In this document: piece by piece, positions 2,365 to 7,627 of the stretch
Position numbering within the stretch: the stretch's first letter is position 1
How the letters are laid out: the number at the start of each line of letters is the position of its first letter
Assembly (NCBI GenBank): GCA_903945375.1
Contig: CAJAVP010000016.1
Coordinates: 1 to 64,000 of the forward strand
Source of the DNA: an uncultured Methylococcaceae bacterium
Lineage (GTDB): Bacteria; Pseudomonadota; Gammaproteobacteria; Methylococcales; Methylomonadaceae
Length of the DNA stretch: 64,000 nucleotides
Direction: 5' to 3'
Position numbers and translations under genes: made by a program
The notes under the pieces: generated by a model
What the model was told of the DNA's origin: nothing
What the model saw: the letters and a program-made list of their open reading frames with translations, nothing else
The model's database searches: none

Positions 2365-2634
2365 GCATGATGATGTACGCCGATAACTAAAACAATTTAA
2401 AAATGTTGAACATTTAGGCGACAAGGCATGGGAACACGCGAAAGCCTGTGACTTACATTGGTAGCTCATTTTTCCAAATTACGGCATTGAATTTTAGTTA
2501 AAGTCGGAAATAATCTCTTACGTGGCCAGTGCGTTCTAAAAAAAAATCCTTATGAATCAATAAATACCTATGCTATAAACAGAATCGCTGCACCAACAAT
2601 AATTATAATTTACTTAAATGTAGTGGGAGAATTT

Positions 2635-3438
2635 ATGCTCAACAAAACACGTCTATTGTTAGGATTAACGCTCACCTTAATCACGTCGGGGTCGCTTTAT
2701 GCCCAAACCCTGACCGTTAACATTAAGAACTTTCAGTTTCAACCCAGTAATCTCAGCATCGATCAAGGCGATACCGTGCAATGGGTCAATCAAGATAGTT
2801 CGACTCACACGAGTACCTCAGACCATTCGCTATGGGACAGCAAGAATCTGTCTCAAGCCGGTACTTTCACACGGTCATTTGATAAACCCGGGAAATTCAC
2901 CTATCACTGTGCAATTCATCCGGGCATGAAAGCAACCGTGATTATCCGCACTGCGGAACAAACGCAAATCAAAATTGGCAAAGACATCATCGCTAGCCTC
3001 CCCAAACAACTTCCGATTACGCTTAAATTAGCGGGGCAAAATGCAGATCAGGTGTATCGGGGCAGTTACCTTGTCAATGCCCAAGGCGCTTGTGCCGATT
3101 GTCATAGTTGTCCGACCTATGCCGCCGGTCATAATCCTTATCAAGGACAACCCAAGCAATTTAATGCACAGAGTTATTTAGCCGGAGGCCGAGCCTTTGG
3201 GCCGTTTATTTCTGCCAACATAACGCCAGATGAAAGCGGTAAGCCAGCCGGCATCACTCTAGCGCAATTTAAAGACCTTCTGCGTACCGGTCATGATCCT
3301 GATGTACCCGGCAATATCCTACAGGTAATGCCATGGCCGATTTACGGCATGATGAGTGATCGCGATTTAGACGCGATATATGCTTATTTAAGTGCTATCC
3401 CTAAAGCAACACAACCATTGGCATCGGCTTGCCCCTAA
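2635..3438 (+). CDS. Periplasmic cupredoxin-cytochrome c fusion protein
   Basis: A signal peptide (MLNKTRLLLGLTLTLITSGS..., cleaved near YAQ) leads into a plastocyanin-like domain of about 90 residues. A first His lies in the STHTSTS region and the C-terminal copper loop YHCAIHPGM gives the Cys-His-Met ligands of a type 1 copper site. After a linker comes a small cytochrome c domain with one haem site, CADCH, and a possible distal Met in QVMPWP. The start is the ATG preceded by GTGGGAGA six bases upstream, rather than the GTG at 2623. The likely role is periplasmic electron transfer; donor and acceptor are unknown. It has its own upstream region and no operon partner. Domain calls are well supported; the fusion's function is not established. 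Confidence 0.8.
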   Translation: MLNKTRLLLGLTLTLITSGSLYAQTLTVNIKNFQFQPSNLSIDQGDTVQWVNQDSSTHTSTSDHSLWDSKNLSQAGTFTRSFDKPGKFTYHCAIHPGMKATVIIRTAEQTQIKIGKDIIASLPKQLPITLKLAGQNADQVYRGSYLVNAQGACADCHSCPTYAAGHNPYQGQPKQFNAQSYLAGGRAFGPFISANITPDESGKPAGITLAQFKDLLRTGHDPDVPGNILQVMPWPIYGMMSDRDLDAIYAYLSAIPKATQPLASACP

Positions 3439-3500: not shown

Positions 3501-3956
3501 TCAGCCTAATTCAAATTCGCTTGGATTTAAACCTAACTCTCTGGCTATTTTGGCTGCCACTGTTTTTTCAGAGACATCAAAATTACCATCAGAGGCAGCA
3601 ATCGCAATAATCATACGAATTAATAATCGCGCCGCTTCTGAATTAGATTTCATTTTACCAATGGCCTGATACGCTTTCGCTTCACCGATATCTTTGTCAA
3701 ATTCCAATTGTCCGACAAATTCTTGAAAAGCTTTGATGACATCGCTAGTTGTAAAAACAGACAGCGCATCGTGTCCTTCAATAAATTTGATCATTTTTTG
3801 CTTTTCTTCAGAGCTGACACTGCCATCAGCCATTGCAATTAAGGCAGAACCAGCCATTGCGGCATTTAAAAAATCTTTGTTTTTAAATTTTAAAACATCG
3901 GTTTTTAATTCATTAGCTTTCGTTTTTAACTGACTCAAAAAGTTTTCAAAACTCAT
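3501..3956 (-). CDS. TerB-like tellurite-resistance family protein
   Basis: The 151-residue helical protein has the TerB pattern: an acidic MADGSVSSEEKQKM segment near residue 40-55 and a second similar ASDGNFDVSEK segment near the C-terminus, the paired acidic sites thought to bind metal in this family. The N-terminal 30 residues are lysine-rich and probably helical. It is the last gene of a minus-strand run, 56 bp after the CitE-like gene and just ahead of a strong terminator. TerB proteins are found with phage-, colicin- and metal-stress systems. With the preceding three genes it makes up a reduced Ter-associated operon. No terC, terD, terE or terZ is present in the window. Confidence 0.75.
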   Translation of the reverse strand: MSFENFLSQLKTKANELKTDVLKFKNKDFLNAAMAGSALIAMADGSVSSEEKQKMIKFIEGHDALSVFTTSDVIKAFQEFVGQLEFDKDIGEAKAYQAIGKMKSNSEAARLLIRMIIAIAASDGNFDVSEKTVAAKIARELGLNPSEFELG

Positions 3957-4012
3957 AGTGAACTCCGGGTTGATTAATAATATTAAGCGATTGTGACAAG
4001 TAAGCCCGCCGG

Positions 4013-4960
4013 TTAAACCGATGATTCGGCAAACACCTCTAGTGGCCTGAACATTTTAACACCAAAACACGCTTGTCGATTGAGGATGGTTTGACTCCAT
4101 TGTTGATGTGTTGCAACCTCACACATGGCATTGTGCATACGAAACACCGCTGGCGCATCTGATTTAACTAAGCTTAACGCCATGTCATAATCCGCTTTAT
4201 CCACCGCATAAGCAAATTCAATCATCGGCACTTGATCAGGATGTATCGCTGTTTTTCCGGTCAGACCATACGCCAAATCTAACGCAATCTCTTTTTGTAA
4301 GGTTGCATGATCGTCCAAATACTCAAATACGGGGGCAGACAATGCAAAACCGTAGGGCTTAAAAATCGTCACTAAATGCGCCAACACCTGTCCTAAGGGT
4401 GTTTCATACAGTGTAAATCCTCGCGGTCTACGCAGCCCCAATAAATTCATTAAATCATTCCCACCAATCCGCAACATTAAAATACGTTGCAAAATGTCTT
4501 CTTGTGATAAACCCTGCCGTAGTTCACGCATTGCGCCTAAATCAAAGACATCTTGGGTTTCTAAGGTCGGCATAATTTTAAATGTCGTCCCTTGTAATTG
4601 ATCAAAATAGGCGTGGAATACAGCATGATTAAATTTGGGTAGTACGAAACCATCAATCTTTTCGATTCCGGGTAAATCGAGCAACCGCGCTAATATGTCC
4701 GGGTTTCGGGTACGAATAAAACGCAACCGTTGGGGCGTTTCTCTAAATCCTTGCAGACATAACGCCAAATGCCGCAAACTGCTATCTAGCTCTTGTTTGG
4801 CAACCGCATCTTCTGTACAAAAAATCATGGCACGTAAGCTAGGCAGTTTTTCACCATTCGCAATATCCATTAAATCTAATCGATGCGCTGGCATATAAAG
4901 CGGTGCGCCTAAGCACCAAGGCGAAAAGGGCGATGCCAAAGCGTGTTCGTATTGACTCAT
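4013..4960 (-). CDS. HpcH/HpaI aldolase / CitE-like lyase of the Ter biosynthetic module
   Basis: The 315-residue protein resembles the citrate-lyase beta / HpcH TIM-barrel family: a TLETQDVFDL segment in the place of the family's IET metal-binding motif, then LRIGGNDL, and a KTAIHPDQV motif near residue 240, typical of CitE proteins. It starts two bases after the stop of the phosphoribosyltransferase gene, so the two are translationally linked. Comparative work on Ter gene neighbourhoods describes CitE-like enzymes beside phosphoribosyltransferases and HAD phosphatases in pathways proposed to make a nucleoside-like metabolite. The substrate is unknown. Family assignment is good; membership of the Ter pathway rests on gene context. 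Confidence 0.75.
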   Translation of the reverse strand: MSQYEHALASPFSPWCLGAPLYMPAHRLDLMDIANGEKLPSLRAMIFCTEDAVAKQELDSSLRHLALCLQGFRETPQRLRFIRTRNPDILARLLDLPGIEKIDGFVLPKFNHAVFHAYFDQLQGTTFKIMPTLETQDVFDLGAMRELRQGLSQEDILQRILMLRIGGNDLMNLLGLRRPRGFTLYETPLGQVLAHLVTIFKPYGFALSAPVFEYLDDHATLQKEIALDLAYGLTGKTAIHPDQVPMIEFAYAVDKADYDMALSLVKSDAPAVFRMHNAMCEVATHQQWSQTILNRQACFGVKMFRPLEVFAESSV

Positions 4961-4962
4961 TT

Positions 4963-6054
4963 TTACAGCTCCTTGATTAAAGCCACCGCACGATACGGTA
5001 GCTCATGACAAACAGTGATAGGAATGGCTTTAGATTCTGCAAGCCAGCGCAAATGCAAGGTTTCGGTAGCTGCCAAGTCTTGCAACAGCAATAATCTCGC
5101 TTCACGCCGCAATAACACCCGCGTCGCTTCTCCAATACCCGGTTTAATATAGTGTGTACGACTAATTTGATAACGCTCACTCAACAAGCGTAGTAGCTTT
5201 TGAGAGGCGTTTTGCAACTGTACGTTATCTCGATTGGGCAAAAAACGCTTGCTAGGGCTTTGCCAAAACGAGGCTACGCTAGCCATTATTTCATCGACAA
5301 AATAGTTCGACAAATCCTGCGCTTTAAATTGCTCGTAATAAACGCAGCCATGAAAATCAGCCTGCGTTAATAAGTTATTATCATAAATGGAACGACTCAC
5401 CAATCCAGACACTGTGGCATTCAGAATACATGAAGGCAGTAAATAATCTTCCGATGTCACCGCGACTGTCGCCGAACCCGATAAATCTGCCAAGACATAA
5501 AGTTCAGCGGGAATAGATAGGCCATCGCTGAGTGCGAACGCCTGCAAACTATCCGCTAATTGTTTCGCAATAACGCCCTTGCCCGTCCAACCATCTACAA
5601 AAACCCACGTTTCTGGTGCGTGCCGTTTGGCGATATAGCGTAGTGCTTGTGTATCTAAGCCGACATCTCGGATGATAGAAATGCCATAGTGCGCCACATC
5701 AGTATCAAAATATTGTTTTAATACGCGCTTAAGTAAAACACCAACAGGCGTACCGGCGCGTAGCAAAGACACCAAGGTAATGCCATGAGGTCTAGTTGCC
5801 ACAATCTGCTCAGCCAAAATTAGAATATGCTCAGCCACTCTATTTTTATTAGCCGCCATTGCCTGATAGAACAAGTCTAAATATTCAGGGGTCGGTAAAC
5901 TTTCATGAGAAAGCAGCTGAGAATAATGCTTTTGCCCTGATTGAATCAGCGATTCTTTAATCGCAACGGGCGTATCGGGCATAGACAACTGAGTTAATAA
6001 GAATTGCACGTCCTCTGCCGGATAGCTACCTGAAAAGAGCGGCGTTGTCTTCAT
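4963..6054 (-). CDS. Phosphoribosyltransferase (StiP/PRTase_1 type) with C-terminal Pelota-like domain
   Basis: The 363-residue protein has a phosphoribosyltransferase core whose PRPP loop is probably VFVDGWTGKGV near residue 150; the upstream TLVSLLRAGTPVG segment also fits the fold. The last 70 residues (from about HYIKPGIGEATRV) resemble the Pelota RNA-binding domain that is fused to this PRTase class in Ter operons. Older databases call the N-terminal part 'cysteine protease StiP', which is probably a misnomer. The start codon overlaps the HAD stop as TAATG, and the stop is two bases before the next ATG. The reaction is presumably transfer to or from ribose-5-phosphate; the base is unknown. 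Confidence 0.75.
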   Translation of the reverse strand: MKTTPLFSGSYPAEDVQFLLTQLSMPDTPVAIKESLIQSGQKHYSQLLSHESLPTPEYLDLFYQAMAANKNRVAEHILILAEQIVATRPHGITLVSLLRAGTPVGVLLKRVLKQYFDTDVAHYGISIIRDVGLDTQALRYIAKRHAPETWVFVDGWTGKGVIAKQLADSLQAFALSDGLSIPAELYVLADLSGSATVAVTSEDYLLPSCILNATVSGLVSRSIYDNNLLTQADFHGCVYYEQFKAQDLSNYFVDEIMASVASFWQSPSKRFLPNRDNVQLQNASQKLLRLLSERYQISRTHYIKPGIGEATRVLLRREARLLLLQDLAATETLHLRWLAESKAIPITVCHELPYRAVALIKEL

Positions 6055-6809
6055 TAAATATTTACCATGATGTTGAATAATTGCGTGTTTTTAGGTATCA
6101 CCGCATAATCGCAAAGTGCTAGAAAAGGCGCGTCTGTTTTGCTATCACCGGCACCAAAACTCAGTACCTCTGAATATAATTGATGGTAGTTGTCTAATAA
6201 GTAACTCACCGCACTTTCCTTATTAATTATCTTAGGCAGAATCGCCAAATTATTGCCGTTGAGATGCCAATACAAGCTGCCATCAAGCACATACGGGTGA
6301 CATTTAATGAGCTCATCCAATAACGTTCTTAACGTTGCCTCCGTTCCATCTTCGTGCTTGATAACGCCATACCACGTCACACCAAAATCCTCTACTAATC
6401 GTGGTTTAAAGCCCGTATAACGCTGACAATAGGCTTCAACGACTTGCCAAACAATCAGCAATTTATCATGGTAAAAAGGCAGCTCAGCCTGTATTTTTGT
6501 TTGCCAAAAGGGATCTACTTCGCCTTGCTTAGTTAAAATCACGGCACCATGATTCAACACCACTTCTTCTCGAAAAGGTAAATTAACACGACGAAACGCC
6601 TGAACATCACGCGCAGTGACAGGCACCATTCGAAAGCCTTGGTCTAACCATTGCCAAAGCCATTGTTGTTTGAGTGTAGAGAACGAATTAGCACTGCCAT
6701 CTGGCAAGAACGCCCTAACCTGTAAACAGGCTGGATCATGATTAGCGTCGCATTTTCTTAGGGTTTGAAATAAGGTGTCATCAAGGTCTACAAAGAAATA
6801 GCGTTGCAT
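6054..6809 (-). CDS. HAD-superfamily phosphatase of the Ter biosynthetic module
   Basis: Motif I is FVDLDDTLFQ at residues 5-14, with the nucleophile Asp and the second Asp; motif II is the Thr in VPVTARD; motif IV is GAGDSKTDAPF near the C-terminus. A cap domain lies between, so this is a complete HAD hydrolase of 251 residues. It is the first gene of the four-gene minus-strand run and overlaps the next gene by one base. In Ter-linked operons such HAD proteins are proposed to dephosphorylate a nucleotide-like intermediate. The HAD call is firm; the substrate is not known. Confidence 0.8.
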   Translation of the reverse strand: MQRYFFVDLDDTLFQTLRKCDANHDPACLQVRAFLPDGSANSFSTLKQQWLWQWLDQGFRMVPVTARDVQAFRRVNLPFREEVVLNHGAVILTKQGEVDPFWQTKIQAELPFYHDKLLIVWQVVEAYCQRYTGFKPRLVEDFGVTWYGVIKHEDGTEATLRTLLDELIKCHPYVLDGSLYWHLNGNNLAILPKIINKESAVSYLLDNYHQLYSEVLSFGAGDSKTDAPFLALCDYAVIPKNTQLFNIMVNI

Positions 6810-6878: not shown

Positions 6879-7526
6879 TCACCACGTTTTTGGCGAAAAT
6901 TTAGCATCGTTACGAATCAACACCGTGTCGCCGCTTTGTGCCAAAACATATAAGCCTTTGCGATAAGCAAATCGCGCCGCCTCATCCGACATCACCATAC
7001 CAGCCACCGCGCCCATTAAATTAACATCACGATATTTGGGTAATAAGCGTTTGATTTTTTCTAAGCGCTCAAGATGATCTTTAACATCATCAATGGTTAA
7101 CTGGCTTTTGCATTCAACCGCAATGGCTTCTTGATCATTAACAACCAGCAAATCAATTTCCGCACATTCCCCATTACGTTCAACATTGATATTAGGATGT
7201 ACCTCGTGAACATCAACACCTCGCTCACGAAACAAACGTACCACAGCAGGACGCACCATCTCTTGTACAAATTCACCTAAACGATTACCTAAATCACCAA
7301 TACTTTTGCTGACTTGTTTAACCAAACGATCGGTTTCTTGGATTTTTCGATCCGTGTCTTGGGTTTTACGGTCAGTATCTTGGAATTTACGATCTGTTTC
7401 TTGGAATTTACGATCTGTTTCTTGAAATTTACGATCTGTTTCTTGAAATTTACGATCTGTTTCTTCAAAGCGTCGAGCGACTTCGCGGAACATATCCCAC
7501 ACTTCATCACGTGTTACCGTTGTCAT
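6879..7526 (-). CDS. Coiled-coil protein with C-terminal PD-(D/E)xK nuclease-like domain (DUF3782-like)
   Basis: The ATG at 7526, with GGAGA ahead of it, gives 215 residues. Residues 22-70 are seven tandem heptads (consensus ETDRKFQ), which must form a coiled coil. Further on, AEIDLLVVNDQEAIAVECKSQL has the D...ExK arrangement of the PD-(D/E)xK nuclease fold. Proteins with this layout are common in cyanobacteria and filamentous gammaproteobacteria; their role is unknown and nuclease activity is not established. The gene is 69 bp upstream of the HAD gene's start on the same strand, so co-transcription with the Ter-like operon is possible but unproven. Confidence 0.7.
   Translation of the reverse strand: MTTVTRDEVWDMFREVARRFEETDRKFQETDRKFQETDRKFQETDRKFQDTDRKTQDTDRKIQETDRLVKQVSKSIGDLGNRLGEFVQEMVRPAVVRLFRERGVDVHEVHPNINVERNGECAEIDLLVVNDQEAIAVECKSQLTIDDVKDHLERLEKIKRLLPKYRDVNLMGAVAGMVMSDEAARFAYRKGLYVLAQSGDTVLIRNDAKFSPKTW
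7317..7463 (-). repeat. Seven 21-bp tandem repeats encoding coiled-coil heptads
   Basis: Seven in-frame 21-bp units encode ETDRKFQ-type heptads. The first four are nearly identical at DNA level (GAAACAGATCGTAAATTC core); the last three have diverged. Such an array can expand or contract by slippage without breaking the frame. Confidence 0.9.
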
Positions 7527-7627
7527 CTTGATTCTCCGATATAAGAAGCGCTTTTTTACATTAAATGACAGACAAGCCGTTAGGTGCACAAACAGCATTT
7601 AGCTATTTGTACACCCAAGGTAATCAA

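What the first reader, a model, noticed from the sequence alone, without database searches (positions are those of the whole stretch)
3501..6809. Reduced Ter-type nucleoside-metabolite operon
Four tightly packed genes (HAD phosphatase, PRTase-Pelota, CitE-like lyase, TerB) end in a strong terminator. Overlaps of one base and a two-base gap show they are co-translated. The set matches part of the biosynthetic module described for Ter operons, but the usual ATP-grasp enzyme, the second PRTase and terC/D/E/Z are absent within the window. This may be a minimal, self-standing version with an unknown product.
Basis: partly seen in the sequence, partly recalled or inferred. Interest (0 to 1): 0.6.

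Follow-up and report, generated by a model that had tools for sequence, protein, structure and literature searches.

The report
Scattered Ter stress-metabolite gene set
Four packed genes in a bacterium related to methane oxidisers are one piece of a known bacterial stress-response gene set that has broken up across the genome, not a new minimal system, because the other pieces are present elsewhere in the same genome.

Summary
The four genes are real and correctly placed (HAD 6054-6809, StiP-PELOTA 4963-6054, CitE-like lyase 4013-4960, TerB 3501-3956, minus strand, strong terminator). They are the back half of the known Ter biosynthetic module. The 'minimal, self-standing' reading fails: the same genome holds three TerD genes plus the Ter ATP-grasp on another contig, PRTase_2-TRSP on a third and a DUF475/TerC gene on a fourth. 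In a same-genus relative TatD-TerD(x3)-ATP-grasp-PRTase_2-HAD-StiP-CitE-TerB-cupredoxin gene is one locus; here it has split. The set is kept after splitting: all 84 StiP-bearing genomes among 251 of the order also have PRTase_2 and TerD matches, and among 398 of the phylum the 12 StiP genomes over cut-off are the 12 PRTase_2 genomes. StiP, described in Pfam as a cysteine protease, has no invariant cysteine and is confidently predicted as a phosphoribosyltransferase fold. Its best solved match is CriT, which puts ribose-5-phosphate on a hydroxyl before a HAD phosphatase strips the phosphate. The HAD gene's near-identical Pseudomonas Ter-plasmid counterpart is solved as 'trehalose phosphatase'. 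These leads make the unknown Ter product testable.

The parts
6054..6809 (-). HAD phosphatase, 251 aa, first gene of the operon; homologous to the P. aeruginosa protein solved as PDB 6CJ0/6D3V
   Evidence: DLDxT, TxR, K and GDSxxD positions conserved in an alignment of 62 sequences
4963..6054 (-). StiP-PELOTA, 363 aa: predicted phosphoribosyltransferase fold fused to an L7Ae/PELOTA-type domain
   Evidence: Pfam PF11202 322.9 bits and PF15608 90.6 bits; model mean pLDDT 95.3; fold matches
5287..6030 (-). StiP domain (residues 9-256)
5569..5604 (-). PRPP-loop-like stretch of StiP (residues 151-162, VFVDGWTGKGVI): D154, G155, W156, K159, G160 identical in 83 of 83 sequences; the second acid of the usual DD pair is Gly
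   Evidence: DD-pair role from PMC10299916 passages
4969..5205 (-). PELOTA_1 domain of StiP
   Evidence: weak profile match to L7Ae proteins, best E 0.0013
5104..5148 (-). IKPGIGEATRVLLRR stretch that aligns with the conserved K-G-x-N-E-x-T-K stretch of L7Ae; K304, E309, T311, R312, R316, R317 identical in 83 of 83
4013..4960 (-). CitE-like C-C bond lyase (PF15617), 315 aa; CxED, FxRxRxP, TLE, GGND and GKTxIHP positions conserved in 49 sequences
3501..3956 (-). TerB, 151 aa, last gene
   Evidence: PF05099 79 bits
3451..3476 (-). intrinsic terminator of the operon
2623..3438 (+). convergent cupredoxin-domain gene: a relative of it also lies next to TerB in same-genus G188, G028 and G106, so it marks the ancestral right-hand flank; landmark, not part of the module

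Best explanation
The operon is the HAD-StiP-CitE-TerB portion of a complete Ter stress-response system whose genes have been scattered over at least three loci (four with DUF475/TerC) in this genome and presumably work in trans. Shown by sequence: which genes are present, that the intact order exists in relatives, that the set is kept together after splitting, and (by prediction) the folds. Inferred: the chemistry. PRTase_2-TRSP (adenine-phosphoribosyltransferase-like) and StiP (a phosphoribosyltransferase fold with a changed PRPP loop) handle ribose-5-phosphate from PRPP. HAD removes the terminal phosphate. The CitE-like enzyme makes or breaks a C-C bond. The ATP-grasp enzyme from the C36 locus joins a carboxylate-bearing unit. 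TerB, TerD and TerC form the metal-linked membrane side. The product is a ribosylated small molecule, as proposed in print for Ter systems, identity unknown.
For: Own genome: TerD x3 and ATPgrasp_Ter in tandem on C36, PRTase_2-TRSP on C100, DUF475/TerC on C128. Un-split order with the same left flank (HolB-PilZ-TatD; for the query) and right flank (cupredoxin gene) in G188, locus L139. Same core order on annotated plasmids. Set kept together: StiP in 84 of 251 genomes of the order; PRTase_2 over cut-off in 84 of those 84 (two of them, G162 and G226, weak or fragmentary), TerD in 84 of 84. Phylum: 12 of 398 each over cut-off, the same 12 genomes, and only this genome has them on different contigs. 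In the 60 of 80 genome-contig loci with enough flank, the stretch held also has HAD in 58, PRTase_2 in 55, CitE in 53, TerD in 52. StiP model pLDDT 95.3 with PRTase matches; model of a PRTase_2 ortholog pLDDT 91.4, best matches adenine PRTases, Z 12.0 over 172 residues.
Against: No product, substrate or phenotype is tested here. The genome is a draft of 133 contigs, so the distances between the loci are unknown; about 6.5 kb of C36 follow the ATP-grasp gene and 3.5 kb of C16 follow TerB. A close ATP-grasp relative (E <= 1e-10) was found in only 72 of 84 StiP genomes. CitE was not found near StiP in 7 of 60 loci and PRTase_2 in 5 of 60 (whether they lie elsewhere in those genomes was not tested), so parts may be dispensable. 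TerC and ATPgrasp_Ter models also match 9 and 13 of 14 control genomes, so the C128 gene's place in the system rests on DUF475 genes seen beside TerD elsewhere. Co-occurrence counts are not corrected for shared ancestry.
Confidence: 0.85

Rival explanations
1. A minimal, self-standing Ter operon that makes its own product without the ATP-grasp enzyme, second PRTase or TerC/D.
For: The four genes form one compact unit with its own terminator.
Against: The missing parts are in the same genome. In the order sample no StiP genome lacks a PRTase_2 or a TerD match, 84 of 84.
Confidence: 0.04
2. A decaying remnant: the Ter cluster was broken up and is being lost in this lineage.
For: StiP, PRTase_2 and ATP-grasp are on three contigs here, while the nine same-genus genomes grouped with it in the StiP tree have StiP and PRTase_2 on one contig.
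Against: The module genes are full length with conserved motifs. Genuine separation was seen in 13 of the 14 separated genomes whose StiP surroundings I read, in six genera, and each of the 13 still has a PRTase_2 and a TerD match over cut-off, weak for PRTase_2 in G162.
Confidence: 0.06
3. StiP is a cysteine protease, as its Pfam description and plasmid product names say, so the operon is a proteolytic stress system.
For: The Pfam description and plasmid annotations. His235 is invariant and Cys237 is present in 75 of 83 sequences.
Against: No cysteine is invariant; Cys237 is Ala, Ser or Val in 8 of 83, including members beside TerD, PRTase_2 and HAD genes. The predicted fold is that of phosphoribosyltransferases. 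The PRPP-loop-like stretch holds invariant residues.
Confidence: 0.03
4. The HAD gene is a trehalose-6-phosphate phosphatase and the operon belongs to trehalose metabolism.
For: It matches PDB 6CJ0/6D3V, named trehalose phosphatase, at 4.3e-31. PMC6838324 treats the P. aeruginosa extra-chromosomal enzyme as a TPP (passages read).
Against: The near-identical P. aeruginosa plasmid gene sits inside a Ter cluster between PRTase_2 and StiP. In 58 of 60 loci a HAD gene lies in the same stretch as StiP. Apart from the HAD gene itself, no neighbour listed or 61 is named a trehalose gene.
Confidence: 0.05

Closest known systems
Ter biosynthetic module (Anantharaman, Iyer and Aravind 2012, Mol Biosyst; the paper itself was not held, known from citing passages and recall), e.g. 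Polaromonas plasmid pPNAP04, Klebsiella and Pseudomonas ter plasmids
   Same: ATP-grasp, PRTase, HAD, StiP, HpcH/CitE in this order with TerD genes nearby (the Klebsiella HAD is annotated 'hypothetical', and in Pseudomonas a peptidase gene lies between ATP-grasp and PRTase); TerC or DUF475 in all three stretches, TerB in the Klebsiella and Pseudomonas ones
   Different: In this genome the module is split into separate loci; the vWA, TerY-C, kinase and PP2C genes of the Polaromonas and Klebsiella versions were not looked for genome-wide
Un-split locus of the same genus (G188, L139; G248, L138)
   Same: Same genes and the left flank HolB-PilZ-TatD (both); in L139 also the cupredoxin gene on the right
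   Different: One locus there (with two extra ORFs in L139); in the query the left part is on C36, PRTase_2 on C100 beside a radical-SAM gene, the right part on C16
CriT-CrpP pair of the Bcs3 capsule polymerase (PDB 8A0C, 8A0M) and Cj1432
   Same: StiP's best solved match by VIA-align is the CriT part (Z 13.1, 200 residues, rmsd 3.8); a PRPP-using transferase followed by a HAD phosphatase (PMC10299916 and PMC12096443 passages); no vicinal DD pair in either
   Different: No sequence match to 8A0C at E <= 1; CrpP's cap is inserted in the flap while the Ter HAD is nearest to HAD-IIB families, below their cut-offs; StiP carries a PELOTA domain
PDB 6CJ0/6D3V, P. aeruginosa extra-chromosomal 'trehalose phosphatase'
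   Same: Homologous over nearly the whole HAD protein; a near-identical gene lies in a P. aeruginosa Ter plasmid cluster
   Different: Assigned to trehalose in print; Ter context not mentioned in the passages I read

Membership tests
Ter biosynthetic module | StiP-PELOTA, HAD and C-C_Bond_Lyase genes together | tested here: met
Ter biosynthetic module | PRTase_2-TRSP in the same genome | tested here: met
   C100
Ter biosynthetic module | Ter-type ATP-grasp in the same genome | tested here: met
   C36, next to TerD x3, 136.5 bits; a second weak hit on C42 is just over cut-off
Ter biosynthetic module | TerD and TerC/DUF475 in the same genome | tested here: met
Ter biosynthetic module | genes in one cluster (usual, not required: 64 of 84 order genomes have StiP and PRTase_2 within 6 kb) | tested here: not met
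   different contigs with other genes around them
Ter biosynthetic module | makes a nucleoside-like metabolite or gives tellurite, phage or colicin resistance | not testable with these tools
   no experiment
Cysteine protease (Pfam description of PF11202) | invariant nucleophilic cysteine | tested here: not met
   no invariant Cys in 83 sequences; Cys237 replaced in 8
Cysteine protease (Pfam description of PF11202) | protease fold | tested here: inconclusive
   the listed matches are PRTases and other Rossmann-like or PLP enzymes; absence from a list does not exclude a fold
Type I phosphoribosyltransferase | PRTase fold | tested here: met
   the 50 rows are CriT chains, PRTases and PyrR, Z 9.2-13.1; in Foldseek's own order three IscS rows with TM-scores of 0.23 or less come first and PRTases follow
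Type I phosphoribosyltransferase | two vicinal acids in the PRPP loop | tested here: not met
   D154-G155 in 83 of 83; CriT too has its acid pair split over two loops
Glycan PRTase (CriT/gPRT) | sequence homology to CriT | tested here: not met
   StiP profile against PDB sequences at E <= 1: only matches to the PELOTA region, no 8A0C
Glycan PRTase (CriT/gPRT) | closest fold | tested here: inconclusive
   top two rows are Bcs3 chains matched over CriT, 2 Z units above the rest; fold alone shows no function
Trehalose-6-phosphate phosphatase | hydrolyses trehalose-6-phosphate | not testable with these tools
   homology only

The most novel reading that the evidence does not exclude
StiP and the HAD gene form a CriT/CrpP-like pair: StiP transfers ribose-5-phosphate from PRPP onto a hydroxyl (a ribofuranoside, not a nucleoside base) and HAD strips the 5-phosphate, giving an O-ribosylated product, while PRTase_2 does the base-type step. 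In the boldest form the PELOTA domain, whose L7Ae-like stretch is nearly invariant, brings an RNA as acceptor, making StiP an RNA ribosyl-phosphate transferase of a stress response.
Probability: 0.2. Interest if true: 0.75.

Novelty: new member of a known kind. Interest (0 to 1): 0.42.

Why it matters
The product of the Ter biosynthetic genes is not known, as far as the passages I read tell, although StiP matches occur in 2567 of 72,556 plasmid records. Scattered sets that keep PRTase_2, StiP and TerD show which genes are tied together in function rather than merely moved as a block. The CriT-like fold of StiP, the adenine-PRTase-like fold of PRTase_2 and the 'trehalose phosphatase' structure from a Ter plasmid relative give three concrete substrate classes to assay.

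Tried and rejected
Minimal self-standing operon: rejected by own-genome searches. Defence annotation: no PADLOC family at E <= 0.1 for the four proteins. StiP as protease: rejected on cysteine conservation and predicted fold. StiP against PDB by single sequence gave only weak PELOTA/L7Ae and chance hits. Rfam at gathering score over L017, L005, L013, L138 and L139: only three tRNAs, all in L017, so no known RNA partner was found. Viral structure library for StiP: few rows at E <= 0.001 (3), mostly PRTase-like, then chance rows. CriT chains do not appear among the 50 rows for the PRTase_2 model; absence from that list excludes nothing. Literature: the library did not hold the 2012 Ter paper. 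Searches for Ter + PRTase + ATP-grasp, PELOTA/HpcH, StiP protease and the PDB codes returned none or nothing on this; the library holds only open-licence papers, so this is no proof that the links drawn here are not in print.

Counts mended on the way: the HAD count was too low because extended StiP ORFs masked HAD genes; one search showed this and one search is the corrected count. Rows dropped before counting: PRTase_2 matches under cut-off (6 of 91 genomes in the order, 20 of 32 in the phylum) and StiP matches under cut-off (4 of 16 in the phylum). The StiP alignment A2 uses the window and 82 of the 83 loci (L217 left out, partial). The PRTase_2 alignment A3 uses 55 of 73 ORFs found (17 left out for length or duplication, and L202, which starts at a contig end). 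In the StiP tree G110 and G222 have very long branches, so their StiP genes may be foreign; they still count as separated sets. Two further same-genus genomes in that tree, G072 and G170, fall outside the clade of ten, as does G197.
Full report
What is there. The window is the first 64 kb of contig C16 (77,264 bp) of a 3.59 Mb, 133-contig genome. On the minus strand lie HAD 6054-6809, StiP-PELOTA 4963-6054, a CitE-like lyase 4013-4960 and TerB 3501-3956. Pfam agrees: Hydrolase_3/S6PP, StiP 322.9 bits + PELOTA_1 90.6 bits, C-C_Bond_Lyase 307.5 bits, TerB 79 bits, all over cut-off. HAD and StiP overlap by one base, StiP and CitE are two bases apart and CitE and TerB 56 bases apart. A terminator stands at 3476-3451 (fold z -4.43). 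No PADLOC family matched the four proteins at E <= 0.1.

The missing genes are in the same genome. TerD gives three hits, in tandem on C36, followed directly by a Ter ATP-grasp gene (136.5 bits; two weaker hits elsewhere, one of them just over cut-off). PRTase_2 gives one hit, on C100, in a PRTase_2-TRSP protein between an ABC-transporter ATPase gene and a radical-SAM gene. A DUF475/TerC protein is on C128; that it belongs here is inferred from DUF475 genes beside TerD in Polaromonas and phage ME3. PELOTA_1 gives one hit and C-C_Bond_Lyase one hit over cut-off, both in this operon.

The set was once one locus. In same-genus genome G188 (L139) the order is HolB-PilZ-TatD-TerD-TerD-TerD-ATP-grasp-(two other ORFs)-PRTase_2-HAD-StiP-CitE-TerB, then the convergent cupredoxin gene; G248 (L138) has the same order without inserts and with another right flank. 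In the query C36 keeps the left flank (HolB-PilZ-TatD) and C16 keeps the right flank (cupredoxin gene, 2623-3438). The simplest reading is that the locus broke between ATP-grasp and HAD and that PRTase_2 moved away. A StiP tree puts the query in a clade of ten same-genus genomes (support 100/97), and the nine others have StiP and PRTase_2 on one contig, although in two of them, G078 and G215, ATP-grasp is on another contig. The other three-contig case of the genus, G197, falls outside that clade, on a long branch and with weak support for its place (80/46). This suggests that the query's split came after it parted from those nine; a single-gene tree cannot settle it.

Split but kept. In 251 genomes drawn from the order StiP is found in 84, PRTase_2 over cut-off in 85, TerD in 110 and a close ATP-grasp relative in 72. 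All 84 StiP genomes have a PRTase_2 match over cut-off (weak in G162, fragments in G226) and all 84 have TerD; only G242 (80% complete) has PRTase_2 without StiP. StiP and PRTase_2 lie within 2 kb in 58, 2-6 kb in 6, far on one contig in 1 and on different contigs in 19. Of these 20 separated cases I read the StiP surroundings of 14. In 13 they are truly apart: G000, G197, G148, G225, G207, G117, G123, G048, G162, G196, G201, G110 and G222, in six genera. G163 was a contig end with a PRTase_2 piece beside HAD. Six (G214, G226, G240, G129, G189, G217) were not read. The break points differ: HAD stays with StiP in G000, G197, G110 and G222, and with PRTase_2 in G148, G207 and G048. In 398 genomes drawn from the phylum, StiP over cut-off is found in 12 and PRTase_2 over cut-off in 12, the same 12; 4 and 20 more genomes have matches under cut-off. 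In 11 of the 12 the two lie on one contig, the query being the exception. These counts are not corrected for relatedness.

The module elsewhere. In the 60 with at least 4 kb before and 3 kb after StiP, the stretch held also has HAD in 58, PRTase_2 in 55, CitE in 53, TerD in 52, ATP-grasp in 39 and TerB in 22. The same core order is annotated on Polaromonas, Klebsiella and Pseudomonas plasmids (the Klebsiella HAD as 'hypothetical', an extra peptidase gene in Pseudomonas), and StiP matches occur in 2567 of 72,556 plasmid records. Acinetobacter phage ME3 carries DUF475/TerC, a TerD, PRTase_2, HAD and StiP within 5.4 kb on one strand.

What StiP is. Pfam's description and plasmid product names say cysteine protease. 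In 83 aligned sequences no cysteine is invariant; the best, Cys237, is Ala, Ser or Val in 8. D154, G155, W156, K159 and G160 are identical in all 83. The model has mean pLDDT 95.3. In Foldseek's list by E-value the first three rows are IscS chains with TM-scores of 0.23 or less and rmsd near 18-20; PRTases follow, many at probability 1.00, and the highest query TM-score among the rows shown is a Bcs3 chain (0.35). VIA-align puts two chains of the Bcs3 capsule polymerase on top (8A0C Z 13.1, rmsd 3.8, 200 residues; 8A0M Z 12.6), and the rest, PyrR and purine PRTases, at 10.6 or less, mostly over 115-172 residues. The matched part, 639-964 of 8A0C, lies in CriT, which moves ribose-5-phosphate from PRPP to a ribitol hydroxyl; the HAD domain CrpP then removes the phosphate, and CriT's two ribose-binding acids lie on separate loops rather than side by side (PMC10299916, passages). 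C. jejuni Cj1432 does the same on a sugar (PMC12096443, passages), and K. pneumoniae O4 and O7 ribofuranosyltransferases are described as the same two-step kind in PMC11231755 (passages). By contrast the model of the PRTase_2-TRSP ortholog from L183 (pLDDT 91.4) matches adenine PRTases first (Z 12.0, 172 residues), and D159, D160, E161, G165 and T167 of its loop are invariant in 55 sequences. So the two PRTases of the module look to be of different kinds. The StiP profile finds no 8A0C sequence match at E <= 1, so the CriT link rests on fold alone.

What HAD is. Its best PDB match is 6CJ0/6D3V 'trehalose phosphatase' (4.3e-31). The P. aeruginosa plasmid gene between PRTase_2 and StiP is near-identical to 6D3V (531.7 bits over 251 residues), so that structure is of a Ter-module HAD or a very close relative. 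PMC6838324 (passages) uses it as the extra-chromosomal TPP of P. aeruginosa and cites Cross 2018 (not read). I take trehalose-6-phosphate to be a stand-in for the true substrate, a phosphorylated glycoside or nucleotide; this is inference.

What CitE and PELOTA say. CitE keeps its acidic, arginine, GGND and GKTxIHP positions in 49 sequences; that these are the catalytic residues of the CitE superfamily is recalled. The PELOTA domain has weak profile matches to L7Ae (best E 0.0013), with the conserved IKPGIGEATR stretch aligned to L7Ae's K-G-x-N-E-x-T-K stretch; that this is L7Ae's RNA-contact stretch is recalled.

Likely working. PRTase_2 and StiP build a phosphoribosylated compound, HAD strips the phosphate, CitE and ATP-grasp tailor it, and TerB, TerD and TerC couple it to a metal-binding membrane side. 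That the Ter cluster makes a nucleoside-like metabolite is a published prediction (cited in PMC8115787 and PMC4633105, passages). The fold results add that one ribosyl step may go to a hydroxyl.

Verdict. It is a known system in a scattered arrangement. The value lies in the constant pairing of StiP with PRTase_2, the re-reading of StiP as a PRTase-fold protein and the HAD link.

Noticed in passing
L178 (phage ME3, KU935715.1 201145-218200): An Acinetobacter phage of 235 kb carries DUF475/TerC, TerD, PRTase_2, HAD and StiP genes close together (small ORFs between), with a vWA gene and a macro-domain gene nearby; no CitE or ATP-grasp hit in the stretch read. A phage-borne Ter core.
   Followed up: partly
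L264 and L263 (IMG/VR contigs): Two further viral-labelled contigs hold Ter modules: L264 CitE-PRTase_2-StiP-HAD with ATP-grasp, L263 a full set with TerD and TerB.
   Followed up: no
window 6879-7598 (-): Gene upstream of the operon with about seven tandem copies of a TDRKFQE-like heptad before a C-terminal half with weak nuclease-like hits (DUF3782, Card1, NERD, PDDEXK).
   Followed up: no
L013 8988-11389 and L159: In the query and in G197 the displaced PRTase_2 gene lies beside a radical-SAM gene of the same family, but in opposite relative orientation.
   Followed up: no
L236, L239 (Candidatus Obscuribacterales), L201 (Planctomycetota): PRTase_2-HAD-StiP-CitE modules with ATP-grasp genes (downstream in the first two, upstream in L201) and no TerD hit in the stretch held.
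   Followed up: no
G110 and G222 (L169, L174): StiP genes with very long branches in the tree although the family score is high; possible replacement by a foreign StiP.
   Followed up: no
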